From contig NC_092576.1 of NCBI RefSeq assembly GCF_037975245.1, forward strand, positions 41,544,611 to 41,608,610: a stretch of DNA of 64,000 bases. The letters run 5' to 3'. A program made the translations under genes and the position numbers. A model generated the notes under the pieces. It saw only the letters and a list, made by a program, of their open reading frames with translations. It had not been told where the DNA came from and ran no database searches. Shown in pieces: positions 12,901 to 64,000 of this stretch; position 1 is the first letter of the stretch; each line of letters starts with the position of its first letter. This stretch comes from Apostichopus japonicus. Taxonomy: Eukaryota; Echinodermata; Holothuroidea; Aspidochirotida; Stichopodidae.

Positions 12901-13129
12901 CAAAACGTTTGAAGGATACTGAGAAACTATTGTCAGAGACATTCAAGTATTACACTAACTTAAAAATGAAAAATTGCACACAATTTTCCGTAGATGGTGT
13001 CCTTCATTAGAGTTCCGACTTAACAGATTACGCAACTGGAACTATTATGTTTGCAACTGCATGTGTTCACATTTTCATCAAACCGGAATAAAATATACCA
13101 CGTGCATGCAAATACTTTGTCTAGTTGAT
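9918..13129. other. 3' flank of NLR-A, no gene recognised
   Basis: The first part aligns with the NLR-B 3' flank (for example 10400-10560 with 33990-34150, and 11490-11560 with 35090-35160). The rest, about 11600-13130, has no clear partner in this window. One short open frame (12212-12433) is listed separately. Confidence 0.6.
12212..12433 (+). other. Possible decayed reverse-transcriptase fragment
   Basis: An open frame of about 70 codons contains 'FFNTIIIPHMIYVVPTWYSF'. The pattern hydrophobic-x-P-H-x-x-Y-x-x-P-x-W resembles the region after the catalytic core of non-LTR reverse transcriptases, such as CR1/Jockey-type elements. No YxDD box, endonuclease or poly-A tail was seen nearby. It could be chance. 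Confidence 0.25.
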
Positions 13130-17937: not shown

Positions 17938-18124
17938 ATGGAAAACCTTAGGTCAAAGCTTGAAACATTAGATGTGGGTTCATCTGATGAACACGCCAGT
18001 GGATATGAAGAACCGTCACTATCATCATCTGCTCAAGCTGCTCAAGCTTTTGTGACGTCATCGCAGTCATTTGAAAGGCCCAAGTTTGTTGTTAGGACTG
18101 AAAATGTGAAGTCAACAGTTACAG
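17938..18124 (+). CDS. NLR-B first coding exon (62 aa, Ser/Ala-rich)
   Basis: Runs from ATG 17938 to a donor at 18125 ('acag|gtgaac'), phase 1 out. It encodes a charged start MENLRSKLETLD and a low-complexity stretch (SLSSSAQAAQAF), and ends TENVKSTVT. No CARD, DEATH or DED fold is apparent. It could be a linker downstream of an unseen effector exon. Confidence 0.75.
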
Positions 18125-21100
18125 GTGAACAAGGTTTTTTCCATGTGTTGTTTGACTCTAATGTCCATGTTCTGTCAATGGATTTATCTCTGTTACTTTT
18201 ACATTCTGATTTTTGCGCACAAGTATGTTAGAATTATTTTGATTTCTTTGTTGGAAATTATTGTTATGCGATCGAATTTTGTTATTCAGCCTTGTTTCTT
18301 AAATACTTCCACATCATAGGAACTTTCATTCATATATCAACGACAATATATTGGATAACCTTCGATAAGGCCTCCTCAAAAGAATGAAAAAGAAACTAAA
18401 TCAGAATTGAAATACAATATAAAAGGGGACATTCAATGTTATTCTACTGAATGATAAGATTAATATCTCGTTTTCACTGAACTATTAGTTTAGTATATAT
18501 TCAACAAGTAGAATACCTCCAAATATTCCGAAGTTTGCATTGATCGTAAACCTCTCACTGATCGTAAACCTTTAGGTTTCCTACACAGTCATTATTCAAT
18601 TACAGGAAGATTTGTATTTTGTCACTTGAAACCCTCTGGTAAGCACAGCAGTTTTATCTATGGTTGCACTTCTAAAGAGAGAGTTACGTTTTCCACCTTC
18701 TCGATAGACTCGCCTAAGGATTTGGATGAAGCTCCAGAACTTTAACACACGTCTTATTTGGATATTTATTTCTGCGAGCATGTACATACATGACATCATT
18801 AAATGTAACTTTCATCCGTTAATTCGATTTTTTTTTTATTTCTTCACAGACAAAAAGTCTCTTTTAATAGATGCCTTGAAAAGGCGATATAAAATACAAT
18901 ACGAAGCTATCAAACCAATACCGTACATTAAGGAGAGACTATATTGTGTAGATAAGGTATTTGTAGAAGGAGGTACAGAGTTCTATTCTGTTAGAGGAAC
19001 AGCAGATAAAGGTGAATGGGTACGTGTGAATTCTTACAGAGATATTTTCACAGATTCCCGAATTAAATCACAGCGTCGTATCATAGAAGCAGGGGCCGGG
19101 TATGGCAAGTCAACTGTAACCCTACAGCTTGCATATGATTGGTGCAACTGTGTAGAAGGTTCACCTCTGAAAGACGTAGAAATTCTGATTCTTCTCCGGT
19201 TAAGACAGCTTGGAAATGTCAAATCTATCTACAAAGCAATCAAACTGTTCTTGGTACCAGACGAACCGCGAATCAAATCAAGTGATATTAAAAATATCAT
19301 TGAAAGCTGTTCTTCTGTTGAGGTACTTCTGGACGGATATGACGAGTATCCTGGTAAGGACAAACGTACAGGAAGTGACGTAGACCGAATTATTACAAAA
19401 TATTTGTTCGAGGATTTTGACGTATCCTTAACAACCAGATACCTTCCAAAGGAATATGACAGATATAATACTAAGCTAGTAAGATTAGTTGGATTTGACG
19501 AGAAAGCACGTGATCAGTACATTCGTAAGGCTATTGCTGGAGTTAACGAAGAGATTGTTGAGGAGATTAAACGCGCTTTGAAAGCTAACCCGATACTTGA
19601 CGACTTATGTCAGGTTCCTATCTTCTTTGTTATGTTTGCTCACATGACTCACGAAAAGGAATATTTTCAAACACTCAAGTCGGTTACAGAATTATTTCGC
19701 TACATGATCAAATGTTTCCATAATCACATGAGAAAGAAATCCCTGGATATGAACACAAAGAAACACATGAGTGAGTATGACATTGAGCATACTGAACTGA
19801 GTAATGTAGCGTTTGAGGGCCTCAGTAACGAAAACCAACAACTATCATGGGGTAGGGACAAACTCGGTGAACGACTTGGTCAAGGGTTTTATGATCACTA
19901 TATCTTAGTTGGTATCTTGGTAGAGGAAGAAGTAGCTGACGTCACAAATGTAATGACCTCAGTCAAATACATACAGACGAAGACCGAAGCAAGGTTCTAT
20001 CACAAGCTGTTTTGTGAATATTTTGCATCTTTTGCATTGGTAGTTAAGGTTGCTGCTGCTAGAAATACAACTGAAGTGAAGAAAATTCTTGATAAATTAG
20101 ATCCATTCGATCTTCAATACCTGTATCGATTCAGCTGTGGGGTTGACGCTACAGTTGGGAGCAAGATAATAGAATACTTGAAGGGAAGAAAAGACTGCGA
20201 TAAGTTTGTCATACTCTGCATCCTGGAACAAACTGGAGAGATAGATGATGACATCAAGAAAAGTGTCAGAGAGATCTGCTCTAAGGTGTTTTTTCTCTCT
20301 GATAGCAACAGCAAGCTACTTCAAAGATTTTCTATTCAGCTGTTGGATATTGCGTCTAAATGTAATGTAAGTAAGACTTTATTGATGTATACGATATAAA
20401 CTGCTGCTCCCTTAGAAATGAGAGCGATACCAGTGTTTGTGTTTTAATTGCTTTTATAGTTCATTTTAACTGAATGGAATATTCCACAACAACTGAAAAT
20501 AATTAAGCTTTGTTTTCAGGCAAAAAACAAACAAACATTTATTCGACTTTCAAGTTAATCGGTAACATACGATATACACTAACATATAATAATAATGACG
20601 TTAATTAAACATTAATTTTTTGACACTTACATCTATTTAATGTAATATTCATTCATACTTTTTAGTTTTTAGTTATCGTACAACATATATTTAAACGTTT
20701 ATTTGGCGACTTATCTAAAAAAAAGCAATACATTGTTTGTTTGTTGCTGATTGTAATGCTAAGTTTTTATAGCTGAATATGTACTTAATTAAAGATATGC
20801 TGAGCCCACACCAATATTACCAACATCTGTATATGATGTGTCTGTGAAGGTAGCCAAAGAATAAACTTTACTCATTTATGTGGTAACACACAATTGCCTT
20901 AGAGCTCTCTGTCTACAACCATTTAGGTTTTATTCAGAAGTCTACAGCTTATATATCAACTCTCTATGAATACAATCCACCATGGATATCAATGTTATAT
21001 TTTGTTGACTCCCTCCAAACCAAAGTTATATTTTATATCCAAACACTTAACCTAAGTATCCTAACTGGTAAACAGTGTAACACATGAACGTTCCAGTGGT

Positions 21101-24100
21101 ATAAATGGGGAGTGCCTTCTTATGGTGTTATACACAGTGATTGTCGAATTCGTGGGTGGGCGGCAGTTGAGGAACATCTAGATATTATACATGTCAAAAT
21201 GTTAGATTGCGATGCTTTGCTGTGCGTATATAACATGGCCCTTTTAACACATTTTTAGTGGGTGGGCTATTTCTAAAAAGGGACCATCATGACAATATCT
21301 AGCGTAGCAAGACATTTTTGTTTGTCATAAATGCCTCCCAGATTGCCGGGAATAGAACTTCCCAGGCCCCGAAAGTTGCATTTAAACATTCTTCATTTTA
21401 AGATATCATGTATTAAAAATTACACTTCAAAAGCAAACATGAATTAGAACAAAAATACAAATGGTAAAATCACTTTGTAGGGGAAAACAAGATTCTACGT
21501 TAAACATGTCGCTAAAGCTAATTGAAATAACGCATACTGTCCAGGCGTTCACATTAACATAGGCCTATTTGAATTTCGGAAGTGGAAATCTCATGGACAG
21601 CTCCACCTGTCTTCGCAGGACACGGCCCTAGCCTTAGAATAAAGCCACTAAAAGCTGAGAAGGCTGTTTAGAACCCTTAGCGCTAACACGTTACTCCTTC
21701 AAACATACATATTAAGCACGATACGCATCAACACAACCATAGTGATATATATATACATTATCTTTAAGTATGGACTAAGTTAGGCTACATTAACTTAATA
21801 TAACAGCCATGTGGTGCGTAGTACCACGTAGCTGTAACTCAATAGTTATACGCAGAGTAGCCATTTCGAACGTGACACAACCGGCCAAGTTAAATCACTA
21901 TTTCAGTGGCGGGGGTGGGGGGGGGGATGTTCCCCTCACTGCGACCGGAAGAAATGGTTCAACCGGGGAATTAAGCAGGGGACAATAGAACCATTGCTAC
22001 CGGAGTAACCTCCTTCTTTTTGTAACTTGACACAACATATTAATTACCTTGCCTTCATAGGGTTACTTATATAGACCTGATTTATATTTCTAAATATGCC
22101 TAAAAATGCATCTCGACCCTTTCTACATTAATCATACGTTTTCAGTTTTCAAATTGCCCCAACACGATTTTCGTAATAAATGTGCAACGGTGATGCACTA
22201 TATACACCTTAACCAAACCTCTTCTGGGGTTTCATATTTCGCATGCCTTTAAAATATACATCATTTAACGCTATCTTAACAACATATTCTGGTTAACAAT
22301 TATGATCAAGCTCTTAACTTTGAGTCTTGAAGAGTCCATGAGAGCCCTGGACAGAAGAAACAGTCAAAAACGTGTTTTTTTTTTAAATTGTGGAAATTGT
22401 TCTATTCAGTCAATATCTTACTGCAAAATAGATATTCAATAAACATACTTATGGTTTAAACTAAATTAAACTGTTAAACATTATATAATGCGTGATCGAT
22501 TCAACGATGTATCTTCAAATGTATTCACCAATCTTTACTTCAATGTTATATTTTGTTCATCATTTAATTTATGTTTTTCCATTAACATTAACATCATAGT
22601 TATTTGATGCATACATCTTTATGCCATCTCGGTTTTATTAATTGCTTGTGTAATTGAATCATCTTTCTTTTGTTCTTCCCGCAGATCCCGATTGTTGATC
22701 TTTATCTGTTTAAATCTTTCAGCAAAGCTGATAAAGATAACATCGTCCTCCGTTCTGGTCTTTCTTTGGGTAATCTTCCTACAATATTCAAGATAAACGT
22801 AGATATAAAGGAAGGAAGAGAATTAACAGAGGAAGACGTCAAAGGTTTATTACTCTATGCAGAACAATCAAATGACTTACGTGAACTCTGGTAAGTATTA
22901 CTAACAGTGTTAGATACATGAAATGTCTGCATTATTGTTATAAGAGATCTTTGACCTGGTACATGGATCGAACAATCCGCATGGCGATGCTATAATTAAA
23001 CAGGCTGCATTATGGAAGCTATTCCGTACCCACTCGGCTCCATTCACATTCATTCAAAACACTTAACATGTCGTCGGAACACACGTCTAACTTTGCTGTA
23101 GGAGAATTATTTATTTCATGAACATTAAATATCTATGAAAGGAAAATGAACTAGAAATTTCTTCCTTTTCCTTTTCCTTTTCAGGTTCCTCAATTGTACA
23201 CTACCAGAAACAGTCCATCCAAATTATATTCCAATCAGATTAAAGACATCGAATGTTAAGGGTAATTACAAAACAATCGATATGTTTAATATATTCATAA
23301 GGTGTGAGTATAACAAAAACTTATTTCCGTGTCCTTCTGTCTCTACCAAATAATCAGTCAATAATATTACAGCGAAACAAATTTCATGTTACCGTATCGT
23401 ATATGCTCTGTAAGTTATCTGTACGAGTAATGTCATGAAAGCCATCTACCAGCTACCAATAATACGATAACATTACTGTTAGACATTCATGGTGTAGGTA
23501 TAGGTTGTATACTTTAGGTGTCATTCACTGTATTATCGATACCAACAGCTATAATTGATCAATCATTAACCAAACAAATTTATAGATTATCCTTCCTATA
23601 TATAATGATAAGGTTTATGTTATACCCGACGCACAACATAACATTACCAATCTGGTTTAAGAAAATAACTAGAAAGAGAAAATGATTACACAGTGTATGG
23701 TTGAGTTCTGAACGAGTAAGTTACATCAGAAAGCGTGCAATTTGTTTGTAAGGTAAAAGAAAAGCAATCTTTGGTCGTAGCCGTATTTACGGGAATGCCG
23801 CCTACAATATTACCATTTGTTTCTAAATAAACAGTCCTAATTTTTACTAAAAAGCTATCATGGGCTATCATGAAAAAAGTGCCATAACATGAATTAACAA
23901 CTACGACAATCTGAAATGTTATAATATATGTCAGTACTGCACTATATATACATAATTAGTGCAATATTTTACTCCTGTCCTAAGTGTATAAACACAAAAT
24001 CAATGACATTCAGCAGTTGAAACAGGGTTAAAAGAAGTACAAACCAAATCCCTTTCTTGGTTTTCCCCACGGACATTGCTACAATGGAACGATTAAAACT

Positions 24101-27100
24101 ACGAAATATTTTTTCTAAGTTTTTCTAGTTGCATAAGGACATAAGGTTGCATAAATAGTTGTAAAAAACATGCAGTCTGTTCCATGACAATGCTTTACTT
24201 ACAACACCCTGCATACATATGATACAGGAATTAATAGGAACATAAAGGCACACGTTCGTGATTGTTATTTATACAGGCTCAGTGAGGAATAATTTGTGTG
24301 ACTTATTTTTAAACCAAGTCACATGAGAATAAATTACACAAGACGTGATTACTGGGGCATGTGAATAACATTTCAAAATGTTGAAGATAGTCGTAACGTA
24401 TAACCTATTAGTTTATTCACTTACTCTGACAGTATTACAATCATAAATTGCAAGTTATAAAGATTGACACAATCACATCCAACATATATTGTCATTTTGT
24501 CATGTCCTATAATAATACTTGAACAGTATTATTGTAATCGAGCACAGTAAACGTTAGGCTAATGAGTGCGTGAAACTATCCCCTTAGTGTGTACTACACA
24601 GTAGGTCTACTTTCTTACATGTATGCCTATCGTAGGTATATTCATTTTGTATGGTCAATATGTTGCCTTACACATCAAACTTCATTCACACTAGCCGAGG
24701 CATAGTACACCAATATCCGTTAACGAGACCAAACCAGGTCAATACAACTCCGTAGCCTAGCCTATGCAGGGCATACAATACTTATTCAAGGAGCCTACTT
24801 TAGATTTGCTAGTCACATTTGTCTCTAATATGGTATTTTCAAAGTCACATATAACACTGTTTACCGTTGCAACATTTCTTGCGTGTTATGAAGTTGTAAA
24901 TTCTATTATTTCCGACCATACAGTGGTTTTTTACCCATAGGGACTTGTCGTGGAGGCGGGGACAGTTCAATTGGAATGACATCATTCTCCTCTGATTATT
25001 TTGCTAAACCACTATTACATAACATAATAAAGAAATATTGTTATTCTTTGATATTTATGATGTTAATTATTATGATCACGTTATGTTTCTTTAGACTCTG
25101 CAGGTATGTAACTATTACAACAACTAATACTGTATCAACATTCATATTGTGATAATATCTTGTCACAGAATGATGATACATGCAAATATGTTCAAACTTA
25201 AATGACACAAGAGTTTAATTAGGCCATTAGTAACATTTCCTTATAACATCTGGAGAATTCTAATCTCCCTAGCTGGTCCGCTGATTGTTGTTTAGTTTAG
25301 CAAAGATTTACCAAAATTTATAACAAATAAAATAACAAAGATGATTAATTTCGTTTACTTCTCTGTTTTGTGTGATGCATGGTTGTCATAGTTACCGCAT
25401 TTTTGATCATTTTGATCATAACACGTTCATTACAAATCTATCTTTGACCTCAGTGTCACTCCAGGATTTTGTTAAGTATACATAAACATATACATAAATA
25501 TATAATATTCTCCAACATGTATAGACCTATCTCTCCTATACAGTCTTCTCGCAAAAGTCTGGCAGTTATTTGGATCTCCATTCTGGGCAGTGGATTAAGG
25601 TAAGTGTATATGGCTATGATACACAGTGAAACCACGGTAAAATACCTCATGATGAGTCAATATCTCATATGGGTTTCGTACTTGTTTGACATATTATTTT
25701 GCAAACTTCACAGTAAGACTATTACATCTTCTCTGATGCACTCTACCGTTCCTTTTATGTAAACTAAGCTACAGTCAAATTATGAAGTCATAGAAGTGAT
25801 AACAATATAAACAGACACAAAATTCGTGATTCTTTAGTGAAGATCGTAACCATATATATCCATGTGTTAGTTCTTATCAGTGTTCATTATAGAAATTAAC
25901 TGGAACAGATTGCAAGGTATTATATTTACATCTTCATACAATAATTACCTAACGGGAAGGTCAAGGTTCATCGTGGGAGTACATGTACAATTTATATCTT
26001 ATTTATTGCCTGTGTGTAATATTAATTGTTAGGTTGATGGCGTCGATACTATCACTAAACTGTGTTCAAAAGACGTGACTATTGCTGAGAGTGACAGTCA
26101 GCCACAACAGAGGTCAACCATGCAGCTCCTGGAGAAGGCATCAAGTCATAACGTAAGTCAGTGTACAAACAGTTAAATATACAAACGTCAGCTTAACCAT
26201 AGAGCCACCGTCTACTTGAACATACCTATGGTATTATTGAAATATAAAAAAAATCAACTTCCAATTCTGCAACTAATTTGCTGGATATCAAACTGATGCA
26301 TTAACATTTACGTCTAGATGCAATTCTATTGACGAAGGGAAGTTTAGCTTTACTAAAGTTTTTTCTAATAAATCTTTGTCGCATAGTTTCATCTGCGTTT
26401 ATCGTACATTCCGTTGCAAACACCGAATGACTACATAACTAACAACATAATTATGTGTCAATTCAGAAAAGGTGTGTTTCCTTAATTCCCGGTTTTCAAA
26501 TTATATTAATATTACAAACTGTTTACAATAATATGATGACTGCTGACAGTTTCATATTTGCAATATATGAGCAATTGCAAACTTTAATTATTAATTTCAT
26601 GTAGACAATTTCTCAAGAGATGTTCGAGTTTTTTTCGCGGTTTTTGTATAACAGTGATAGGTTAACAGTGCCAAACTAGTCGTGGAACCTTATCTTCATG
26701 TGATATCGACTCAACCATTATGCCCATTGAAAGCACAGTTAACAATTTAGGCCATTTCCTTTGTTTAACAGGCCGAACAACATTCTCTTATCTGTCAAGA
26801 AACACAAACCCTGGTCATAGTTGTTCAGCTTAATTTACCTATTATTTTACCAGCTATAATGAAGCATTTTGTGTTTTTTCGTATTTTAATGGTATTCTGT
26901 TTTCAAACTCGAAAGTCTTTTTCAGACAAGACATTTTCAAACACTGACCTAGAATTGTACGAAAATATCGTTTTGCTAACTTATTTCAAGTAGCCTACTT
27001 AGTCAATAAAGAATGGTAATTACTGCTGCAATAGTCTGTCTATTTAATTCATTGCATATATAACATCGGCATCATTAATATTTTTCATTCCATCAGATTC

Positions 27101-30100
27101 TTATCAGAAGCTTGTTCCTACACCACTCATTTAGTCACGTGGTTGAGGGTGACGTCATCCTACAATCAGGTCTACGGCTACCAAGACTGTCATCAGTATA
27201 TATAATGTGCATAGAAACAGAGGGCGGCAGAGAAATGACACAACAAGAGATTGTTGATATAATGATGTATGTACAACAGTCACACACACTAGTAAGACTA
27301 TCGTAAGTATACTAGTATATGTGTCATATATCATAACTGAACGAATACTTACAGAGAAACCGTACCATGTTGCTTCAAAGTCCTTTGTTAGGATATCCTC
27401 AAACTCATTCCTTCGATATAATAATTGGGCTACGAATCAATCATCCAGTGTTCACACCATCCTGATCTAGATCGAAATCAGGCAGCTTAAACCGAGCACA
27501 GGTCAGCCTTCAACACGTGGTTTCGAACCAAATTATGCTGCAAAGTAACGCCACTGGAATAAGACTTATAGGAACCTCAGTATTTGCGTACAATATGTAT
27601 ATCAACAGCGTCCAGAATGAAATTCTTCAAAAACTGTCCACTTTCTTTTCCTTATTGGAATGGTGACCTAAAATGTAAGCTCTTAATGTGTTTTATTATT
27701 ATGCGAGTATAAAGTAGTAAATAACAGAAAATACCAAACTCAACGCAGAAAGCCTCGTTAATGGGGGAACAATACTGCTTTCTTAACTGTTCACATATTT
27801 GTAGTACACATATTTGTGCCTACAGTAATGACCTTTATCATGTCATTCATTTACGACTTCATTGAATAAAAATACCTTAAATTTCCCCGCCCTAATCCCG
27901 TTACATGTCGCCATATTAGAAGAGAGGGAGGCAGACAATTTGCGAAGTCATACATGCACCTGAGACAGTTTCTGAAAACGCGTTGCCAACTTAAATATTC
28001 ATATACAAAATGATAAACACCTTCAAAATTCGAGTAAATGTAAAATATTTATCTAATTTCGAATGATAGATGCATACGTAGGCAAAATGTAATTTTTACA
28101 TTACATTTTCGAAAAGCTGTATTTGCAAAATGACTCTCAACACATCCGAACAGTGAATTACATTGTATTCATTTGAATTCTAGACTTCGGCTTAATCACT
28201 TTCGTCTGAATATTACGTTTTTGGTTTATCCCACCTCATGTCGGGGTGATGCAGTTAATTCTAGGCAGTGATTGCCTGGGTTAATGTGTGCCTAAGTCAT
28301 ATTGAATTGCTCGAATGAACGTTACCTTTAACGACCTTTATACACAGTGTTACAGTATGTTGAGCAGTGTTACTATTACTAAGTTAATTACTTGTTACCG
28401 GTACTTCGGTTGTAACGGACATTGAACGATATTAAATATAAGCCTAGGTTACATCTCGTCTGTAAGCATAACTGAAAATCGAACGCATTTGGTCCGTAAG
28501 ATGGGTCCATGATGACTTGAGGCAGTTTCTTAAGATTTCAGATTAATATTGTCCAATTCAACCGCTGTATTAGTTTAAAAATCCGTGATAGATTAGTAGT
28601 TTCATCATATACCGTAAATGAACTTTTTTGTGTGTGCAGCGGTACTACGAGGGAATCTGCATAGTGGTAAGTCTGACTCTGCCGAGGTGCATGTGCGAAG
28701 TCATAGAAACGTTGCACCGTGGGTAATTCACACAAACATGGCCTCTTGAAGAGAGTGTGGTTGGGATTTAATGGGAAACTCATTTACGGAATGACATATG
28801 TATAAAAAATGTCCAAAACAATATAAGCATGTCCACAATAATATGACCATGTCCAAATTTATATAAACAAGACGAAACTAATCCAAGAGTGTCCAAAAAA
28901 ATAGGAGCGTGTCTAAAATAATATAAGACACGTTTTAAAAATACATTATGTCGGCATCAGTTTGTTGAGAGTGATTTTACTTGATTGTGAATAAACAGAA
29001 ACAAATTCGAGTTTTCTTCTCACCATTAATTATTTACAGGGTTTAGGGATACATTTAGTATAAAGTTATATGAAATTGTTTAAATTTGTTCATTCTCACA
29101 TCCTTTTGTTATCTTGCTGTATTTTCTCATTATCTTTTAGTTTCTACAACTGTCTACTACCTAGAACAATTCCAGTCCGATCTATTCCTTCGGCTTGGAT
29201 TTCAAAGGATATCAAAGGTATCGCCCATAAAACAAACCTTAAATTGATTGATAGATCGGTTTAAATAATTCTACAGTATAGTACATGTCGTTGTTATTTT
29301 TTTTCCAGTATTGGCTTTATGCGATGAAAAGATTTATATTACGGGAGTCGTAATATAATATCGTAATATAATCGATCCGTCCCGTCCCGTCCTGTCCCGT
29401 CCGCCCGCCCGTCCTTCCATCCATCCATCCATATATGTAATTTATGTCAGTATATATGTCATACAACTTGTTAGACATATATTATCTATATACATATTTA
29501 TATATTTATATTTAAATTATCAGTTTAAAGCTTCTCCCTTCTTCTTGTTTGTAGTTAAGTGGTCTCCATGTGGATTTGATGATAGCGAATACGTTCTTGA
29601 TCTTCGAAAAGGTGCTTGGTTGGTGAGTTTCTGAACAATGTCATTCAATCGTTGGTTCCTTCCCACTAGGAATAGATGCATAATATAATCTAGTAGCTAG
29701 CAGCATATATACTGACGTAGTAACATGCAAATAATACTGGTATACGTTCCCTTCAAATTAAGTAAACTATTGAAAGTTCCAAAATCCGTCAGAAATTGAA
29801 ATAAAAAAGATGAACCAATTGGTAACTTTTGATATTCAATGTTAAAAGAACGGCATGTTTATTTCACTTATAGAAATTCATTGCTTTTTTAGCTAAATTT
29901 ACTTTGTAATTTAAAACATATTATAATATAAGTGCTAACAGCTCTTAACTGAACAATGTCACTGGTGTAACTAAATGTTTCAATGGTTGAAACCTTAATG
30001 TATTTTTTAGTCAGAATGAACATACTGACACAGAGCCACGAAAAGAAACAGAACTGATCAATTACATCTTGTGGAAATGAAATTGTCATTACTTACTGCT

Positions 30101-33100
30101 TTGACTTCATTCTAATTGTTTGATATGACTTCATTTCTTATATCATTTATTGCAGAAAGAAACCGTTGTTAATTTTGTTCTCTAATACGTCACGATGCGA
30201 TAAACCCGAATAATAAATATGGCTCAAACTCAGTTTAGAATGACATCTGCTTAAACAGCTTCATAGAACACAAGACAGAACATTAAACACGTTGTTTATG
30301 AAAAAGACCAAATATCACCCGAAATAAGTACATTTAATTTCTAGGATTAATAAATGAAGTATAAAGTCACATCATTCCTCTTCTAGACTTATCATAGCAA
30401 GTTTCTTACAAGTAACAGTATGTTATCATTTATTCTGCTTCTGAATGATAGAATGACCAAATGCATATTAGCACAACGTATAACAAGGTAAACATTACGG
30501 ATATTTTTTAGTCGGTTTGATATAGAATCAAATAACTCGATTACAATAAATTACAACTATTGGAGAAATTTAAACTATATTAATTAATACTCTATCACAT
30601 TGAACATCTTTAACTGAGAAATTATACTTTATATTAAAACGGAACAAGCCCTAGTCTAATACTTTTGTTTGATTTTTTTAAATCTTTAATGAGTTGTTAT
30701 TCGGAATTATTCGTAGAAATCACGTAATATATTGTATTCGGTTTAAACACAGAGTACCGATGGATTAGAAAATTATTGCCCATGAAGATTAAACAATGTT
30801 CTGCATTCTAAAATAATTGACTCTACCAATGTCCTAATTTTTCGTGTCCTGGAACAAAAACCATACTTTTTGCTCTTTGGTTTCGTTTGTCTGTAGTTGG
30901 TGGTTTTAAGATGTTAGGTAGAAAACAAGAACACCTCTTTCTAAGAAGAGTGAGAGACTTAATATTTATATTTTAGACCAGTGGCAGATATTTAGTAAGA
31001 TTTATGGTTATAATAATGACTTATGATGACAAAAATGTAAGTGAAATAACAATAAGCTTAATACTTTTTGTAAGGATGGACATTTTTTCTTTAAACAGAT
31101 GCATTATCTCAGCTTTGTTGAAAATAACAAAGCATAGTGGGATAAAGGTTGTACCAGATGGATATATTTAGACTATGAAGGAGCATATTTTTACAATGCA
31201 GGTTAATTGAACTATAATTTCAGTGTTCCTCATGTCCAGCTGGTCTTATTAAGTATATACGGTTTTGTACTGGGAAATTTCTATACGCAAAATGAGTCAA
31301 GACATGTACGTCCCTCAACATTGCCCATGGGCATGATCATGCACAAACGGCTCATCTCTAATTCTTTGAGTACAATCCATCTTTCATACAAGTGTAAAGA
31401 TAACATATGTATGCTTTAAGAATTGACTAACACGTTGCTTTAATGATGGCATTTATCAATAATAACGAACGAACAGTAGGCCGCTACTAATTTTTCTTAC
31501 TAGGCCTTGACCTGAAATCACTTAGAATATTATAATAGAATGTATAGTTCGTCAAATGCACACATTTTAAAGTACTTAATTTGTAAGTGATCAAAACGGC
31601 TGTCTTTTCTCTTTACATCAGCACAATGATGTCCATTTGACCGTTTTTGAGTACTACGTACAAGTAAGTATTACAAGTATATCACAGTATAGTGTTACCA
31701 TTTCATACAAATCTCTTAAAGCTAACGGCTCGAATCCAAACGGAAGTGTAGCAGAACTTTTACTGAAGAATACACCAGTGCATGTCTGAATAACGTACCT
31801 ACTAATGGTTAAATAACCATGTGCTAGTAATATGAAACTATACCTTCACTACCTTAGTCACAGAACTGATGATATATATTACGGTATAAATATTTAGAAT
31901 GTTGTGTGGATGAAAGAGTTTACTTGTCTTTGAAACCAGATAAATATGTACCAATATTACAATTATTATTTTACAACATCAACTTGAAGATGAGTGCCGT
32001 TAGATCAAGGAGTTGGTCATACACAATACTCTCATCATATACAATGGTTCTGTGATTGGCTCATATGCAACAACATGACTGATAGGAATCAATCATAGTT
32101 CCAGCCTGGATTATCAGTTATTCTTGTAACCTTCGCTTACTGACTCAAATCACCTTCTTAACCCCTATTTCCTTGTGTTTTGCAGCAAAATTTAACCTAA
32201 ACATCGTATTATTAAAGTTTCAAATCACGTTTATTTTTTTTCAGGATAACATAATTGTATAGCGTTTACTACTTTTAAATTGAAATGTATTTGCAAGCAA
32301 ACATTTGCAAGGACAACTATTAGAGCATAACTTCAAGTACAAATAATCGAAAACATGTACTAAACATATAAAGGAAGACACTTTAATAACTACGGTTCAC
32401 AAATGCTAGTAGATGTTCAATGGAATTGCGATGTATATTCACAACGACGGTAGCAGAAAGTGAATATAAATTTGTAATATGGAGGCTCTACGCAGAGGGT
32501 TAAAATTAAGAGGCGAGAAACATTCAAATTAACAACGACATTACCATATTTATCTGAGCTTTGATGTGAAAATCATATGATTATATCTGGCAACATAATT
32601 TAGTCTATCATCCTTACAGTGAATATAAGTCAATCCCTGCATCGATATACACTATGCTATATGAACAATCAAATGTAATTCAGCACATCTCTATCTAAAT
32701 ATTATCTCAAAAGTAACTAAGAAAGCTTTCACTATTATTAGCTTTCTATCCGGTAATTTGTAAAATGTCTATTCTATCTTGTTTCAGGTGAACAGATACC
32801 GAGACAAATATGCGGTAGGCTTCAAGTAATTTGTGCTTTCTTCTCTAATGAAGTAGTATTTTGCGTTTTAAATTTAATCAAATGATTAGAGCATGAACTG
32901 AAAGTTAAAAGAACTGCAAACATGCAGTTTACATTTGAGGGAAAAACTAATAATAACCACGACCAAAGAAGAGTAGTAGATGTTTAATGGAATTTTGATA
33001 TACATTCACAACGACTGTAGCAGAGAACATAATTTAGTCTCTCATTCCATACAGTGAATATAATTCAAATTCTGTTTTGATATACACTAGGCTATATTAA

Positions 33101-38752: not shown

Positions 38753-52417
<13,665 letters not shown>

Positions 52418-54260
52418 CTGTGAAGGTAGCCAAAGAATAAACTTTACTCATTTATGTGGTAACACACAATTGCCTTAGAGCTCTCTGTCTACAACCATTT
52501 AGGTTTTATTCAGAAGTCTACAGCTTATATATCAACTCTCTATGAATACAATCCACCATGGATATCAATGTTATATTTTGTTGACTCCCTCCAAACCAAA
52601 GTTATATTTTATATCCAAACACTTAACCTAAGTATCCTAACTGGTAAACAGTGTAACACATGAACGTTCCAGTGGTATAAATGGGGAGTGCCTTCTTATG
52701 GTGTTATACACAGTGATTGTCGAATTCGTGGGTGGGCGGCAGTTGAGGAACATCTAGATATTATACATGTCAAAATGTTAGATTGCGATGCTTTGCTGTG
52801 CGTATATAACATGGCCCTTTTAACACATTTTTAGTGGGTGGGCTATTTCTAAAAAGGGACCATCATGACAATATCTAGCGTAGCAAGACATTTTTGTTTG
52901 TCATAAATGCCTCCCAGATTGCCGGGAATAGAACTTCCCAGGCCCCGAAAGTTGCATTTAAACATTCTTCATTTTAAGATATCATGTATTAAAAATTACA
53001 CTTCAAAAGCAAACATGAATTAGAACAAAAATACAAATGGTAAAATCACTTTGTAGGGGAAAACAAGATTCTACGTTAAACATGTCGCTAAAGCTAATTG
53101 AAATAACGCATACTGTCCAGGCGTTCACATTAACATAGGCCTATTTGAATTTCGGAAGTGGAAATCTCATGGACAGCTCCACCTGTCTTCGCAGGACACG
53201 GCCCTAGCCTTAGAATAAAGCCACTAAAAGCTGAGAAGGCTGTTTAGAACCCTTAGCGCTAACACGTTACTCCTTCAAACATACATATTAAGCACGATAC
53301 GCATCAACACAACCATAGTGATATATATATACATTATCTTTAAGTATGGACTAAGTTAGGCTACATTAACTTAATATAACAGCCATGTGGTGCGTAGTAC
53401 CACGTAGCTGTAACTCAATAGTTATACGCAGAGTAGCCATTTCGAACGTGACACAACCGGCCAAGTTAAATCACTATTTCAGTGGCGGGGGTGGGGGGGG
53501 GGATGTTCCCCTCACTGCGACCGGAAGAAATGGTTCAACCGGGGAATTAAGCAGGGGACAATAGAACCATTGCTACCGGAGTAACCTCCTTCTTTTTGTA
53601 ACTTGACACAACATATTAATTACCTTGCCTTCATAGGGTTACTTATATAGACCTGATTTATATTTCTAAATATGCCTAAAAATGCATCTCGACCCTTTCT
53701 ACATTAATCATACGTTTTCAGTTTTCAAATTGCCCCAACACGATTTTCGTAATAAATGTGCAACGGTGATGCACTATATACACCTTAACCAAACCTCTTC
53801 TGGGGTTTCATATTTCGCATGCCTTTAAAATATACATCATTTAACGCTATCTTAACAACATATTCTGGTTAACAATTATGATCAAGCTCTTAACTTTGAG
53901 TCTTGAAGAGTCCATGAGAGCCCTGGACAGAAGAAACAGTCAAAAACGTGTTTTTTTTTTAAATTGTGGAAATTGTTCTATTCAGTCAATATCTTACTGC
54001 AAAATAGATATTCAATAAACATACTTATGGTTTAAACTAAATTAAACTGTTAAACATTATATAATGCGTGATCGATTCAACGATGTATCTTCAAATGTAT
54101 TCACCAATCTTTACTTCAATGTTATATTTTGTTCATCATTTAATTTATGTTTTTCCATTAACATTAACATCATAGTTATTTGATGCATACATCTTTATGC
54201 CATCTCGGTTTTATTAATTGCTTGTGTAATTGAATCATCTTTCTTTTGTTCTTCCCGCAG

Positions 54261-57200
54261 ATCCCGATTGTTGATCTTTATCTGTTTAAATCTTTCAGCA
54301 AAGCTGATAAAGATAACATCGTCCTCCGTTCTGGTCTTTCTTTGGGTAATCTTCCTACAATATTCAAGATAAACGTAGATATAAAGGAAGGAAGAGAATT
54401 AACAGAGGAAGACGTCAAAGGTTTATTACTCTATGCAGAACAATCAAATGACTTACGTGAACTCTGGTAAGTATTACTAACAGTGTTAGATACATGAAAT
54501 GTCTGCATTATTGTTATAAGAGATCTTTGACCTGGTACATGGATCGAACAATCCGCATGGCGATGCTATAATTAAACAGGCTGCATTATGGAAGCTATTC
54601 CGTACCCACTCGGCTCCATTCACATTCATTCAAAACACTTAACATGTCGTCGGAACACACGTCTAACTTTGCTGTAGGAGAATTATTTATTTCATGAACA
54701 TTAAATATCTATGAAAGGAAAATGAACTAGAAATTTCTTCCTTTTCCTTTTCCTTTTCAGGTTCCTCAATTGTACACTACCAGAAACAGTCCATCCAAAT
54801 TATATTCCAATCAGATTAAAGACATCGAATGTTAAGGGTAATTACAAAACAATCGATATGTTTAATATATTCATAAGGTGTGAGTATAACAAAAACTTAT
54901 TTCCGTGTCCTTCTGTCTCTACCAAATAATCAGTCAATAATATTACAGCGAAACAAATTTCATGTTACCGTATCGTATATGCTCTGTAAGTTATCTGTAC
55001 GAGTAATGTCATGAAAGCCATCTACCAGCTACCAATAATACGATAACATTACTGTTAGACATTCATGGTGTAGGTATAGGTTGTATACTTTAGGTGTCAT
55101 TCACTGTATTATCGATACCAACAGCTATAATTGATCAATCATTAACCAAACAAATTTATAGATTATCCTTCCTATATATAATGATAAGGTTTATGTTATA
55201 CCCGACGCACAACATAACATTACCAATCTGGTTTAAGAAAATAACTAGAAAGAGAAAATGATTACACAGTGTATGGTTGAGTTCTGAACGAGTAAGTTAC
55301 ATCAGAAAGCGTGCAATTTGTTTGTAAGGTAAAAGAAAAGCAATCTTTGGTCGTAGCCGTATTTACGGGAATGCCGCCTACAATATTACCATTTGTTTCT
55401 AAATAAACAGTCCTAATTTTTACTAAAAAGCTATCATGGGCTATCATGAAAAAAGTGCCATAACATGAATTAACAACTACGACAATCTGAAATGTTATAA
55501 TATATGTCAGTACTGCACTATATATACATAATTAGTGCAATATTTTACTCCTGTCCTAAGTGTATAAACACAAAATCAATGACATTCAGCAGTTGAAACA
55601 GGGTTAAAAGAAGTACAAACCAAATCCCTTTCTTGGTTTTCCCCACGGACATTGCTACAATGGAACGATTAAAACTACGAAATATTTTTTCTAAGTTTTT
55701 CTAGTTGCATAAGGACATAAGGTTGCATAAATAGTTGTAAAAAACATGCAGTCTGTTCCATGACAATGCTTTACTTACAACACCCTGCATACATATGATA
55801 CAGGAATTAATAGGAACATAAAGGCACACGTTCGTGATTGTTATTTATACAGGCTCAGTGAGGAATAATTTGTGTGACTTATTTTTAAACCAAGTCACAT
55901 GAGAATAAATTACACAAGACGTGATTACTGGGGCATGTGAATAACATTTCAAAATGTTGAAGATAGTCGTAACGTATAACCTATTAGTTTATTCACTTAC
56001 TCTGACAGTATTACAATCATAAATTGCAAGTTATAAAGATTGACACAATCACATCCAACATATATTGTCATTTTGTCATGTCCTATAATAATACTTGAAC
56101 AGTATTATTGTAATCGAGCACAGTAAACGTTAGGCTAATGAGTGCGTGAAACTATCCCCTTAGTGTGTACTACACAGTAGGTCTACTTTCTTACATGTAT
56201 GCCTATCGTAGGTATATTCATTTTGTATGGTCAATATGTTGCCTTACACATCAAACTTCATTCACACTAGCCGAGGCATAGTACACCAATATCCGTTAAC
56301 GAGACCAAACCAGGTCAATACAACTCCGTAGCCTAGCCTATGCAGGGCATACAATACTTATTCAAGGAGCCTACTTTAGATTTGCTAGTCACATTTGTCT
56401 CTAATATGGTATTTTCAAAGTCACATATAACACTGTTTACCGTTGCAACATTTCTTGCGTGTTATGAAGTTGTAAATTCTATTATTTCCGACCATACAGT
56501 GGTTTTTTACCCATAGGGACTTGTCGTGGAGGCGGGGACAGTTCAATTGGAATGACATCATTCTCCTCTGATTATTTTGCTAAACCACTATTACATAACA
56601 TAATAAAGAAATATTGTTATTCTTTGATATTTATGATGTTAATTATTATGATCACGTTATGTTTCTTTAGACTCTGCAGGTATGTAACTATTACAACAAC
56701 TAATACTGTATCAACATTCATATTGTGATAATATCTTGTCACAGAATGATGATACATGCAAATATGTTCAAACTTAAATGACACAAGAGTTTAATTAGGC
56801 CATTAGTAACATTTCCTTATAACATCTGGAGAATTCTAATCTCCCTAGCTGGTCCGCTGATTGTTGTTTAGTTTAGCAAAGATTTACCAAAATTTATAAC
56901 AAATAAAATAACAAAGATGATTAATTTCGTTTACTTCTCTGTTTTGTGTGATGCATGGTTGTCATAGTTACCGCATTTTTGATCATTTTGATCATAACAC
57001 GTTCATTACAAATCTATCTTTGACCTCAGTGTCACTCCAGGATTTTGTTAAGTATACATAAACATATACATAAATATATAATATTCTCCAACATGTATAG
57101 ACCTATCTCTCCTATACAGTCTTCTCGCAAAAGTCTGGCAGTTATTTGGATCTCCATTCTGGGCAGTGGATTAAGGTAAGTGTATATGGCTATGATACAC

Positions 57201-60200
57201 AGTGAAACCACGGTAAAATACCTCATGATGAGTCAATATCTCATATGGGTTTCGTACTTGTTTGACATATTATTTTGCAAACTTCACAGTAAGACTATTA
57301 CATCTTCTCTGATGCACTCTACCGTTCCTTTTATGTAAACTAAGCTACAGTCAAATTATGAAGTCATAGAAGTGATAACAATATAAACAGACACAAAATT
57401 CGTGATTCTTTAGTGAAGATCGTAACCATATATATCCATGTGTTAGTTCTTATCAGTGTTCATTATAGAAATTAACTGGAACAGATTGCAAGGTATTATA
57501 TTTACATCTTCATACAATAATTACCTAACGGGAAGGTCAAGGTTCATCGTGGGAGTACATGTACAATTTATATCTTATTTATTGCCTGTGTGTAATATTA
57601 ATTGTTAGGTTGATGGCGTCGATACTATCACTAAACTGTGTTCAAAAGACGTGACTATTGCTGAGAGTGACAGTCAGCCACAACAGAGGTCAACCATGCA
57701 GCTCCTGGAGAAGGCATCAAGTCATAACGTAAGTCAGTGTACAAACAGTTAAATATACAAACGTCAGCTTAACCATAGAGCCACCGTCTACTTGAACATA
57801 CCTATGGTATTATTGAAATATAAAAAAAATCAACTTCCAATTCTGCAACTAATTTGCTGGATATCAAACTGATGCATTAACATTTACGTCTAGATGCAAT
57901 TCTATTGACGAAGGGAAGTTTAGCTTTACTAAAGTTTTTTCTAATAAATCTTTGTCGCATAGTTTCATCTGCGTTTATCGTACATTCCGTTGCAAACACC
58001 GAATGACTACATAACTAACAACATAATTATGTGTCAATTCAGAAAAGGTGTGTTTCCTTAATTCCCGGTTTTCAAATTATATTAATATTACAAACTGTTT
58101 ACAATAATATGATGACTGCTGACAGTTTCATATTTGCAATATATGAGCAATTGCAAACTTTAATTATTAATTTCATGTAGACAATTTCTCAAGAGATGTT
58201 CGAGTTTTTTTCGCGGTTTTTGTATAACAGTGATAGGTTAACAGTGCCAAACTAGTCGTGGAACCTTATCTTCATGTGATATCGACTCAACCATTATGCC
58301 CATTGAAAGCACAGTTAACAATTTAGGCCATTTCCTTTGTTTAACAGGCCGAACAACATTCTCTTATCTGTCAAGAAACACAAACCCTGGTCATAGTTGT
58401 TCAGCTTAATTTACCTATTATTTTACCAGCTATAATGAAGCATTTTGTGTTTTTTCGTATTTTAATGGTATTCTGTTTTCAAACTCGAAAGTCTTTTTCA
58501 GACAAGACATTTTCAAACACTGACCTAGAATTGTACGAAAATATCGTTTTGCTAACTTATTTCAAGTAGCCTACTTAGTCAATAAAGAATGGTAATTACT
58601 GCTGCAATAGTCTGTCTATTTAATTCATTGCATATATAACATCGGCATCATTAATATTTTTCATTCCATCAGATTCTTATCAGAAGCTTGTTCCTACACC
58701 ACTCATTTAGTCACGTGGTTGAGGGTGACGTCATCCTACAATCAGGTCTACGGCTACCAAGACTGTCATCAGTATATATAATGTGCATAGAAACAGAGGG
58801 CGGCAGAGAAATGACACAACAAGAGATTGTTGATATAATGATGTATGTACAACAGTCACACACACTAGTAAGACTATCGTAAGTATACTAGTATATGTGT
58901 CATATATCATAACTGAACGAATACTTACAGAGAAACCGTACCATGTTGCTTCAAAGTCCTTTGTTAGGATATCCTCAAACTCATTCCTTCGATATAATAA
59001 TTGGGCTACGAATCAATCATCCAGTGTTCACACCATCCTGATCTAGATCGAAATCAGGCAGCTTAAACCGAGCACAGGTCAGCCTTCAACACGTGGTTTC
59101 GAACCAAATTATGCTGCAAAGTAACGCCACTGGAATAAGACTTATAGGAACCTCAGTATTTGCGTACAATATGTATATCAACAGCGTCCAGAATGAAATT
59201 CTTCAAAAACTGTCCACTTTCTTTTCCTTATTGGAATGGTGACCTAAAATGTAAGCTCTTAATGTGTTTTATTATTATGCGAGTATAAAGTAGTAAATAA
59301 CAGAAAATACCAAACTCAACGCAGAAAGCCTCGTTAATGGGGGAACAATACTGCTTTCTTAACTGTTCACATATTTGTAGTACACATATTTGTGCCTACA
59401 GTAATGACCTTTATCATGTCATTCATTTACGACTTCATTGAATAAAAATACCTTAAATTTCCCCGCCCTAATCCCGTTACATGTCGCCATATTAGAAGAG
59501 AGGGAGGCAGACAATTTGCGAAGTCATACATGCACCTGAGACAGTTTCTGAAAACGCGTTGCCAACTTAAATATTCATATACAAAATGATAAACACCTTC
59601 AAAATTCGAGTAAATGTAAAATATTTATCTAATTTCGAATGATAGATGCATACGTAGGCAAAATGTAATTTTTACATTACATTTTCGAAAAGCTGTATTT
59701 GCAAAATGACTCTCAACACATCCGAACAGTGAATTACATTGTATTCATTTGAATTCTAGACTTCGGCTTAATCACTTTCGTCTGAATATTACGTTTTTGG
59801 TTTATCCCACCTCATGTCGGGGTGATGCAGTTAATTCTAGGCAGTGATTGCCTGGGTTAATGTGTGCCTAAGTCATATTGAATTGCTCGAATGAACGTTA
59901 CCTTTAACGACCTTTATACACAGTGTTACAGTATGTTGAGCAGTGTTACTATTACTAAGTTAATTACTTGTTACCGGTACTTCGGTTGTAACGGACATTG
60001 AACGATATTAAATATAAGCCTAGGTTACATCTCGTCTGTAAGCATAACTGAAAATCGAACGCATTTGGTCCGTAAGATGGGTCCATGATGACTTGAGGCA
60101 GTTTCTTAAGATTTCAGATTAATATTGTCCAATTCAACCGCTGTATTAGTTTAAAAATCCGTGATAGATTAGTAGTTTCATCATATACCGTAAATGAACT

Positions 60201-61198
60201 TTTTTGTGTGTGCAGCGGTACTACGAGGGAATCTGCATAGTGGTAAGTCTGACTCTGCCGAGGTGCATGTGCGAAGTCATAGAAACGTTGCACCGTGGGT
60301 AATTCACACAAACATGGCCTCTTGAAGAGAGTGTGGTTGGGATTTAATGGGAAACTCATTTACGGAATGACATATGTATAAAAAATGTCCAAAACAATAT
60401 AAGCATGTCCACAATAATATGACCATGTCCAAATTTATATAAACAAGACGAAACTAATCCAAGAGTGTCCAAAAAAATAGGAGCGTGTCTAAAATAATAT
60501 AAGACACGTTTTAAAAATACATTATGTCGGCATCAGTTTGTTGAGAGTGATTTTACTTGATTGTGAATAAACAGAAACAAATTCGAGTTTTCTTCTCACC
60601 ATTAATTATTTACAGGGTTTAGGGATACATTTAGTATAAAGTTATATGAAATTGTTTAAATTTGTTCATTCTCACATCCTTTTGTTATCTTGCTGTATTT
60701 TCTCATTATCTTTTAGTTTCTACAACTGTCTACTACCTAGAACAATTCCAGTCCGATCTATTCCTTCGGCTTGGATTTCAAAGGATATCAAAGGTATCGC
60801 CCATAAAACAAACCTTAAATTGATTGATAGATCGGTTTAAATAATTCTACAGTATAGTACATGTCGTTGTTATTTTTTTTCCAGTATTGGCTTTATGCGA
60901 TGAAAAGATTTATATTACGGGAGTCGTAATATAATATCGTAATATAATCGATCCGTCCCGTCCCGTCCTGTCCCGTCCGCCCGCCCGTCCTTCCATCCAT
61001 CCATCCATATATGTAATTTATGTCAGTATATATGTCATACAACTTGTTAGACATATATTATCTATATACATATTTATATATTTATATTTAAATTATCAGT
61101 TTAAAGCTTCTCCCTTCTTCTTGTTTGTAGTTAAGTGGTCTCCATGTGGATTTGATGATAGCGAATACGTTCTTGATCTTCGAAAAGGTGCTTGGTTG
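54261..61198 (+). CDS. Headless copy of the NLR-B C-terminal modules (seven exons, no NACHT)
   Basis: Exons 54261-54466 (A), 54761-54837 (B), 57120-57175 (C), 57609-57728 (D), 58673-58878 (A), 60717-60793 (B) and 61131-61198 (C) repeat those of NLR-B exactly, splice sites included. No NACHT exon precedes them: upstream is the minus-strand Ig gene. The tail exons should lie beyond 64000. It may be untranscribed, or join upstream NLR-B transcripts by skipping the NLR-B tail, since the last C exon ends and the first A exon begins in phase 0. It may also not exist, if the repeat is an assembly error. Confidence 0.8.
60385..60505. repeat. 20-bp minisatellite (second copy)
   Basis: Same array as 28809-28929, with no difference seen. 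A fast-changing array that is unchanged between copies favours a very recent event or an artefact. Confidence 0.75.
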
Positions 61199-64000
61199 GT
61201 GAGTTTCTGAACAATGTCATTCAATCGTTGGTTCCTTCCCACTAGGAATAGATGCATAATATAATCTAGTAGCTAGCAGCATATATACTGACGTAGTAAC
61301 ATGCAAATAATACTGGTATACGTTCCCTTCAAATTAAGTAAACTATTGAAAGTTCCAAAATCCGTCAGAAATTGAAATAAAAAAGATGAACCAATTGGTA
61401 ACTTTTGATATTCAATGTTAAAAGAACGGCATGTTTATTTCACTTATAGAAATTCATTGCTTTTTTAGCTAAATTTACTTTGTAATTTAAAACATATTAT
61501 AATATAAGTGCTAACAGCTCTTAACTGAACAATGTCACTGGTGTAACTAAATGTTTCAATGGTTGAAACCTTAATGTATTTTTTAGTCAGAATGAACATA
61601 CTGACACAGAGCCACGAAAAGAAACAGAACTGATCAATTACATCTTGTGGAAATGAAATTGTCATTACTTACTGCTTTGACTTCATTCTAATTGTTTGAT
61701 ATGACTTCATTTCTTATATCATTTATTGCAGAAAGAAACCGTTGTTAATTTTGTTCTCTAATACGTCACGATGCGATAAACCCGAATAATAAATATGGCT
61801 CAAACTCAGTTTAGAATGACATCTGCTTAAACAGCTTCATAGAACACAAGACAGAACATTAAACACGTTGTTTATGAAAAAGACCAAATATCACCCGAAA
61901 TAAGTACATTTAATTTCTAGGATTAATAAATGAAGTATAAAGTCACATCATTCCTCTTCTAGACTTATCATAGCAAGTTTCTTACAAGTAACAGTATGTT
62001 ATCATTTATTCTGCTTCTGAATGATAGAATGACCAAATGCATATTAGCACAACGTATAACAAGGTAAACATTACGGATATTTTTTAGTCGGTTTGATATA
62101 GAATCAAATAACTCGATTACAATAAATTACAACTATTGGAGAAATTTAAACTATATTAATTAATACTCTATCACATTGAACATCTTTAACTGAGAAATTA
62201 TACTTTATATTAAAACGGAACAAGCCCTAGTCTAATACTTTTGTTTGATTTTTTTAAATCTTTAATGAGTTGTTATTCGGAATTATTCGTAGAAATCACG
62301 TAATATATTGTATTCGGTTTAAACACAGAGTACCGATGGATTAGAAAATTATTGCCCATGAAGATTAAACAATGTTCTGCATTCTAAAATAATTGACTCT
62401 ACCAATGTCCTAATTTTTCGTGTCCTGGAACAAAAACCATACTTTTTGCTCTTTGGTTTCGTTTGTCTGTAGTTGGTGGTTTTAAGATGTTAGGTAGAAA
62501 ACAAGAACACCTCTTTCTAAGAAGAGTGAGAGACTTAATATTTATATTTTAGACCAGTGGCAGATATTTAGTAAGATTTATGGTTATAATAATGACTTAT
62601 GATGACAAAAATGTAAGTGAAATAACAATAAGCTTAATACTTTTTGTAAGGATGGACATTTTTTCTTTAAACAGATGCATTATCTCAGCTTTGTTGAAAA
62701 TAACAAAGCATAGTGGGATAAAGGTTGTACCAGATGGATATATTTAGACTATGAAGGAGCATATTTTTACAATGCAGGTTAATTGAACTATAATTTCAGT
62801 GTTCCTCATGTCCAGCTGGTCTTATTAAGTATATACGGTTTTGTACTGGGAAATTTCTATACGCAAAATGAGTCAAGACATGTACGTCCCTCAACATTGC
62901 CCATGGGCATGATCATGCACAAACGGCTCATCTCTAATTCTTTGAGTACAATCCATCTTTCATACAAGTGTAAAGATAACATATGTATGCTTTAAGAATT
63001 GACTAACACGTTGCTTTAATGATGGCATTTATCAATAATAACGAACGAACAGTAGGCCGCTACTAATTTTTCTTACTAGGCCTTGACCTGAAATCACTTA
63101 GAATATTATAATAGAATGTATAGTTCGTCAAATGCACACATTTTAAAGTACTTAATTTGTAAGTGATCAAAACGGCTGTCTTTTCTCTTTACATCAGCAC
63201 AATGATGTCCATTTGACCGTTTTTGAGTACTACGTACAAGTAAGTATTACAAGTATATCACAGTATAGTGTTACCATTTCATACAAATCTCTTAAAGCTA
63301 ACGGCTCGAATCCAAACGGAAGTGTAGCAGAACTTTTACTGAAGAATACACCAGTGCATGTCTGAATAACGTACCTACTAATGGTTAAATAACCATGTGC
63401 TAGTAATATGAAACTATACCTTCACTACCTTAGTCACAGAACTGATGATATATATTACGGTATAAATATTTAGAATGTTGTGTGGATGAAAGAGTTTACT
63501 TGTCTTTGAAACCAGATAAATATGTACCAATATTACAATTATTATTTTACAACATCAACTTGAAGATGAGTGCCGTTAGATCAAGGAGTTGGTCATACAC
63601 AATACTCTCATCATATACAATGGTTCTGTGATTGGCTCATATGCAACAACATGACTGATAGGAATCAATCATAGTTCCAGCCTGGATTATCAGTTATTCT
63701 TGTAACCTTCGCTTACTGACTCAAATCACCTTCTTAACCCCTATTTCCTTGTGTTTTGCAGCAAAATTTAACCTAAACATCGTATTATTAAAGTTTCAAA
63801 TCACGTTTATTTTTTTTCAGGATAACATAATTGTATAGCGTTTACTACTTTTAAATTGAAATGTATTTGCAAGCAAACATTTGCAAGGACAACTATTAGA
63901 GCATAACTTCAAGTACAAATAATCGAAAACATGTACTAAACATATAAAGGAAGACACTTTAATAACTACGGTTCACAAATGCTAGTAGATGTTCAATGGA
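61199..64000. other. Intron sequence of the headless NLR copy, up to the window edge
   Basis: Matches 29623-32424. No exon was seen. The open frame 62783-62995 duplicates that at 31207-31419 and lies in an intron. Confidence 0.7.

What the first reader, a model, noticed from the sequence alone, without database searches (positions are those of the whole stretch)
20830..64000. Apparently perfect 11.6-kb direct repeat at an exact 31,576-bp offset
20830-32424 and 52406-64000 agree at every landmark without indels, including a minisatellite and homopolymer runs that normally drift fast. This means either a very recent tandem duplication of a 31.6-kb unit holding an NLR 3' half plus an Ig-pseudokinase gene, or a false duplication in assembly. 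Both matter to anyone counting immune genes here.
Basis: partly seen in the sequence, partly recalled or inferred. Interest (0 to 1): 0.75.

Follow-up and report, generated by a model that had tools for sequence, protein, structure and literature searches.

The report
Recent tandem duplication inside immune-gene cluster
A 31.6-kb stretch of an animal chromosome appears twice in a row and almost letter for letter, most likely a very recent tandem duplication that copies two immune-type genes only in part, so it adds broken copies rather than new working genes; an assembly error is less likely but not excluded.

Summary
Copy 1 is window 20830-52404, one extra A follows at 52405, and copy 2 runs from 52406 to 83978, past the window's end. 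Removing one TA unit from a microsatellite of copy 1 makes the copies identical. No N lies in the 264 kb read.

Both outer borders are ancestral: paralogues run through the left one, and an Ig reading frame with a paralogue runs through the right one. Only 52405/52406 is a new join, with one added base, no shared bases and no homology between the breakpoints. That fits a recent end-joined or replication-born tandem duplication, not recombination between repeats.

The unit starts after a NACHT exon and ends inside the first coding exon of an Ig-pseudokinase gene. So the extra copies are partial: a NACHT gene without its NACHT exon, and an Ig gene without start codon, signal peptide and half of Ig domain 1. 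NACHT counts do not change.

Reads are not held, so misassembly or a circular or somatic source is not excluded; several features speak against the usual false-duplication classes. Real duplication: 0.68. Ordinary in kind, low interest.

The parts
20830..52404 (+). Copy 1 of the duplicated unit, 31,575 bp
   Evidence: identical to copy 2 except one TA unit
52405..52405 (+). One added base (A) at the new join between copy 1 and copy 2 (junction B)
   Evidence: in the 200-bp junction query, bases 1-99 match the copy 2 end, bases 101-200 match the copy 1 start, base 100 matches neither
52406..64000 (+). Copy 2 of the unit, part inside the window; continues to window coordinate 83978 (G000:C16:41628588), 31,573 bp in all
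20829..20830 (.). Junction A, left border of copy 1: ancestral sequence, inside the stretch between the NACHT exon and its next downstream exon
   Evidence: paralogue at C16:41338000-41346500 (L029) runs through it at 96.9 %, L003 at 97.0 %, L030 at 82 %
18843..20396 (+). NACHT exon of the NLR-type gene, outside the unit and not duplicated
   Evidence: Pfam NACHT E 7.1e-06, 26.4 bits (cut-off 26.7)
22658..22891 (+). Conserved exon downstream of the NACHT exon, inside the unit; second copy at 54234-54467
   Evidence: homologues follow the NACHT exon by 1.7-3.9 kb in three neighbouring genes
27079..27303 (+). Diverged relative of the same exon type, inside the unit; second copy at 58655-58879
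52227..52451 (-). Reading frame across junction B: C-terminal half of Ig domain 1 fused to 15 residues read from the start of copy 2
47453..48932 (-). Further Ig exons (48429-48932 and 47453-47833) of the copy-1 Ig-pseudokinase gene
   Evidence: C2-set_2 30.1 bits for 47453-47833 (cut-off 21); 18.2 bits for 48429-48932
39566..42228 (-). Kinase-like exons: 42031-42228, 40271-40435 (HPG for HRD, DFC for DFG), 39566-39685
   Evidence: motifs read by eye
43083..43144 (+). (TA)31 array, (TA)30 in copy 2: the only difference between the copies

Best explanation
A real, very recent head-to-tail duplication of a 31.6-kb segment at the end of a tandem NLR-gene cluster. Shown: the segment from inside the NACHT gene (just past its NACHT exon) to inside the first coding exon of an oppositely oriented Ig-pseudokinase gene is present twice; both outer borders are the old arrangement and only the middle join is new, carrying one added base and no shared bases. 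Inferred: a break or a replication-fork switch joined the right end of the segment to its left end by non-homologous joining. Consequence, read from the sequence: copy 1 keeps a complete left gene (NACHT plus downstream exons) but an Ig gene without its first about 50 residues (start codon, signal peptide, half of Ig domain 1); copy 2 keeps the Ig gene whole with its right flank but only the downstream exons of the NACHT gene. So the two old genes each survive once, and the extra material is two truncated copies facing away from the join.
For: Unit borders and near-identity. No N in 264,000 bases. Junction A ancestral in three paralogous loci. Junction C ancestral: Ig frame continues across 83978/83979 to a Met plus signal-peptide-like start, and the paralogue L033 reads alike across it (aligned by eye). 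Junction B as a whole occurs once in the genome, its halves at A and C (40-mers of A, B and C once each in 264 kb). A join with no overlap and an added base is not what overlapping contig ends give, and 22 % of 644 fly CNV breakpoints have inserted or deleted bases without microhomology (PMC4056370, passages; mostly much smaller events). Neither copy carries substitutions, which speaks against both haplotype-type and error-type false duplication as defined in PMC9516828 (passages). The locus duplicates often: 11 of 83 scored NACHT matches lie in 438 kb on one strand.
Against: No reads are held: depth and spanning reads are untested. A 31.6-kb unit may be longer than the reads used, so even a true junction need not prove two tandem copies in one molecule. 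Assemblers have made false duplications by using the same reads more than once (PMC10172123, passages). Exact identity is also what such an artefact gives; the one TA step could be a stutter error. Two NACHT matches on C12 with equal scores (32031007 and 32526312) may be a further near-identical pair in this assembly; the search meant to test them did not complete.
Confidence: 0.68

Rival explanations
1. False duplication in the assembly: one real 31.6-kb segment written twice by a misjoin or by reuse of the same reads.
For: The copies are identical but for one TA unit. Such errors are known in long-read assemblies (PMC9516828, PMC10172123; passages). The unit ends cut genes at arbitrary places.
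Against: [quoted passage not shown] No haplotype differences and no scattered errors. The join has no shared bases and one extra base, so a read or chimera with that join must have been used. It is the only pair over 99 % among 45 pairs longer than 800 bp in 264 kb; the next is 97.1 %.
Confidence: 0.22
2. A real junction but not a fixed germline tandem pair: a 31.6-kb extrachromosomal circle, a somatic or a heterozygous duplication whose junction reads were threaded into the chromosome by the assembler.
For: A circle cut from 20830-52404 would carry the same junction B; the sequence alone cannot tell the two apart (inference).
Against: No positive evidence; the TA difference would need a second event or an error.
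Confidence: 0.08
3. An older duplication kept identical by gene conversion, or unequal crossing-over between homologous repeats (NAHR).
For: Older duplications surround it: 184-15520 against 26520-38666 at 68-86 %, and paralogues at 82-97 %.
Against: No homology between the two breakpoint regions of 600 bp (best 17 bp at 88 %). None of the old paralogy borders coincides with 20830. Conversion tracts that cover a whole 31.6-kb unit to both ends are unlikely (inference).
Confidence: 0.02

Closest known systems
Simple tandem duplications (copy-number variants) with non-homologous breakpoints, as in fly and human CNV surveys (PMC4056370, passages seen)
   Same: Head-to-tail copy, single new join, one added base, no homology at the ends
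   Different: Much larger (31.6 kb) than most of that fly set; known here from an assembly only, not from reads or a population
Copy-number variation of large animal NLR families, zebrafish (PMC11192531, abstract and outline seen)
   Same: Large, clustered NACHT family with recent copies
   Different: Here the NACHT exon itself is not copied; no population data; species unnamed
False duplications in assemblies (PMC9516828, passages seen)
   Same: Partial gene copies side by side on one scaffold
   Different: No gap, no haplotype differences, no error load, an added base at the join
Sponge receptor tyrosine kinases with Ig-like domains (Geodia; recalled, only a search listing seen)
   Same: Ig-type exons, a possible membrane segment and kinase-like exons in one gene region
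   Different: HRD and DFG motifs are changed here; the host taxon was not identified

Membership tests
Tandem duplication | Two head-to-tail copies with one new join between them | tested here: met
Tandem duplication | Both outer borders keep the pre-duplication arrangement | tested here: met
   Left. Right: (the paralogue part right of the border aligned by eye)
Tandem duplication | Both copies present in DNA of the organism (depth, spanning reads) | not testable with these tools
   no reads held
Heterotype false duplication | Copies differ like two haplotypes | tested here: not met
   equal after removal of one TA unit; the heterozygosity of the animal is unknown
Homotype false duplication | Sequencing-error differences in one copy | tested here: not met
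   only one TA step, which could itself be an error
False duplication (both kinds) | Gap between copies | tested here: not met
   0 N in 264,000 bases; a filled gap cannot be seen
False duplication (both kinds) | Half or lower read depth, discordant reads | not testable with these tools
   no reads held
Duplication by NAHR | Homologous sequence at both breakpoints | tested here: not met
   best 17 bp at 88 % between 600-bp regions
NLR gene | NACHT domain | tested here: inconclusive
   E 7.1e-06 but 26.4 bits against a cut-off of 26.7; 83 scored relatives in the genome
NLR gene | Leucine-rich repeats downstream | tested here: inconclusive
   no Pfam family at E 0.1 in three + frames of 20830-32424, read with X at stops, which lowers sensitivity for short exons
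Receptor pseudokinase with Ig domains | Ig domains | tested here: met
   C2-set_2 above cut-off for 47453-47833; the other two Ig exons weak
Receptor pseudokinase with Ig domains | Kinase fold with catalytic motifs lost | tested here: met
   PK_Tyr_Ser-Thr 38.5 bits (cut-off 23.1); HPG and DFC read by eye; the N-lobe was not identified and exons were not checked by transcripts

The most novel reading that the evidence does not exclude
The new join makes a new gene rather than a dead one: junction B supplies an in-frame Met and 15 residues (52451-52407, - strand) to the headless Ig-pseudokinase, giving a version without a signal peptide that would stay inside the cell, driven from sequence of the NACHT gene's intron and divergent from a NACHT-less copy of the NLR-type gene. 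A decoy or regulator pair born this recently would show an immune gene being made.
Probability: 0.05. Interest if true: 0.5.

Novelty: new member of a known kind. Interest (0 to 1): 0.25.

Why it matters
If real, it is a base-resolved, very young duplication in a fast-changing immune-gene cluster: with no substitutions in 31,573 bp the 95 % upper limit on divergence is 9.5e-5, or at most about 4,750 to 47,500 generations for assumed rates of 1e-8 to 1e-9. It shows how such clusters gain gene fragments. For gene counting the effect is small and specific: one extra headless Ig-pseudokinase model and one extra NACHT-less model, and no extra NACHT. If an artefact, it is a warning for this assembly.

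Tried and rejected
Origin in a virus or bacterium: a 38-base piece gave 0 matches in viral contigs and genome contigs (that search says it may leave out the window's own genome). No Rfam family at gathering score and no tRNA in the window. PDB sequence search of the NACHT ORF gave one weak hit, an NLR family protein, E 0.65.

The Ig region L034 next to the third Ig paralogue was fetched to define exons; it gave one match to the known Ig exon (E 0.001), three weaker ones, and a NACHT-exon match, so it was of little use.

Other perfect duplications in the assembly: an Ig pair on C12 with equal scores turned out 95 % alike, so not a second perfect case. A NACHT pair on C12 with equal scores stays untested. 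A wider survey of the genome was not possible. The species was not identified. Kinase-exon searches of the genome did not complete.

Chance, deletion of a third copy and NAHR were considered and rejected.

Full report
Observation. The window holds no N. The window's own genome is held: 671.6 Mb in 35 contigs, with the window at C16:41544611-41608610. I read 100 kb on each side. Copy 1 is 20830-52404 (31,575 bp), base 52405 is an added A, and copy 2 is 52406-83978 in window numbering (31,573 bp). The only difference is one unit in a (TA)n array, 31 against 30; copy 1 without that unit equals copy 2. The unit includes 18 homopolymers of 8 or more bases, the longest 17, and all are the same in both copies. 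There is no N in the 264,000 bases.

Which joins are old. Left border (junction A): a paralogous locus 220 kb to the left runs straight through 20829/20830 at about 97 % (L029 over 15670-22247 at 96.9 %, L003 over 19335-23734 at 97.0 %), and a more distant one does so at 82 % (L030). Right border (junction C): on the minus strand the reading frame of an Ig exon runs through 83978/83979 to an upstream Met at 84127 with a signal-peptide-like stretch. A third Ig paralogue (L033) reads alike on both sides of that place; I aligned this part by eye. Its DNA hit is 71 % over 153 bases inside the unit, and its protein hit is 59 %. The middle join (junction B) as a 200-bp query has one full match in the genome; four other places match only one half, two of them exactly, at A and at C. 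The first 2,001 bases of the unit have two full matches at 100 % and one at 96 %. The last 2,000 bases have two at 100 % and one short 71 % hit.

How it arose. The ends that were joined share no base at the join, one A was added, and the 600-bp regions around the two breakpoints have no homology beyond a 17-bp match at 88 %. This excludes homologous recombination between repeats as far as those regions go and fits end joining or replication-fork switching. Joins with inserted or deleted bases and no microhomology made up 143 of 644 breakpoints (22 %) in a fly survey, of mostly much smaller events (PMC4056370, passages). With no substitution in 31,573 bp, divergence is below 9.5e-5 at 95 %; for assumed rates of 1e-8 to 1e-9 the event is younger than about 4,750 to 47,500 generations. 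Gene conversion could make it look younger.

Genes. The NACHT exon at 18843-20396 (Pfam NACHT 7.1e-06, 0.3 bit under the cut-off) lies left of the unit. The exon at 22658-22891 follows NACHT exons at 1.7 to 3.9 kb in three neighbouring genes and is duplicated. No Pfam LRR was found in 20830-32424. On the other strand lies an Ig gene: Ig exons at 52227 up to the join, 48429-48932 and 47453-47833, and kinase-like exons at 42031-42228 (weak), 40271-40435 and 39566-39685 (PK_Tyr_Ser-Thr 38.5 bits). HRD reads HPG and DFG reads DFC (by eye), so pseudokinase is a fair name. The exon structure is not checked by transcripts. In copy 1 the join removes about 50 codons from the start of this gene (149 bases); the frame happens to stay open into copy 2 for 15 residues with a Met. 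In a genome search with that fused frame, the other 21 of 22 matches all begin at residue 11 or later. So each old gene survives once, and the extra copies are headless.

Surroundings. The 607 NACHT candidates of the genome gave 83 scored matches; 11 of these lie at C16:41127582-41565006, all on the plus strand, 33 to 61 kb apart, and 4 of the 11 hold stops. The duplication sits at the right end of this cluster. Older paralogy inside the window, 184-15520 against 26520-38666 at 68-86 %, shows earlier rounds. Among 45 self-matches over 800 bp in 264 kb, the pair studied is the only one above 99 %; the next is 97.1 %.

Real or artefact. Published marks of false duplication are low or half depth, gaps between copies, discordant reads and haplotype-specific k-mers (PMC9516828, passages). 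Depth and reads cannot be tested here. The testable marks are absent: no gap, no haplotype-like differences, no error load. A join without overlap and with an added base also needs at least one read that carried it. Against this, long-read assemblers have duplicated tens of megabases by reusing reads (PMC10172123, passages), and exact identity is what that gives. A possible second pair of near-identical NACHT loci on C12 could not be tested, while a similar-looking Ig pair on C12 is only 95 % alike. I put a real chromosomal duplication at 0.68, an artefact at 0.22, a circle or somatic or heterozygous source at 0.08.

Novelty. Recent partial tandem duplications in clustered immune-gene families are a known kind; zebrafish NLR genes vary widely in copy number (PMC11192531, abstract), and close NLRX pairs are reported in the sponge Dysidea avara (PMC12909245, passages). 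Whether this very case is in print was not searched. The added value is the base-level anatomy and the correction that no NACHT domain is gained.

Noticed in passing
window 184-15520 and 26520-38666: Older collinear paralogy, 68-86 % identical pieces, from an earlier round of duplication in the same cluster.
   Followed up: partly
G000:C16:41302410 and 41424255 (+), outside the window: Relatives of the Ig exon lie about 4.3 kb upstream of, and on the same strand as, two NACHT exons (41306711, 41428519), so Ig and NACHT genes are interleaved in the cluster.
   Followed up: no
G000:C12:32031007 and 32526312: Two NACHT matches 495 kb apart with the same score; possibly another near-identical duplication in this assembly.
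   Followed up: partly
window 21154-21670: Dispersed repeat: bases about 325-840 of the unit match many places on other contigs; not at a breakpoint.
   Followed up: no
window 40816-41361: Two tandem copies of a 278-bp unit, 87 % alike, within the Ig-pseudokinase gene.
   Followed up: no
G000:C17, C7, C12, C22: Many further intact NACHT exons at 67-70 % identity, dozens of them on C17:6.0-9.6 Mb: a very large NLR-type family.
   Followed up: no
L040, bases about 846-1012: A short repeat that matches itself on both strands at many genome places, so a palindromic element, near an Ig exon on C12.
   Followed up: no
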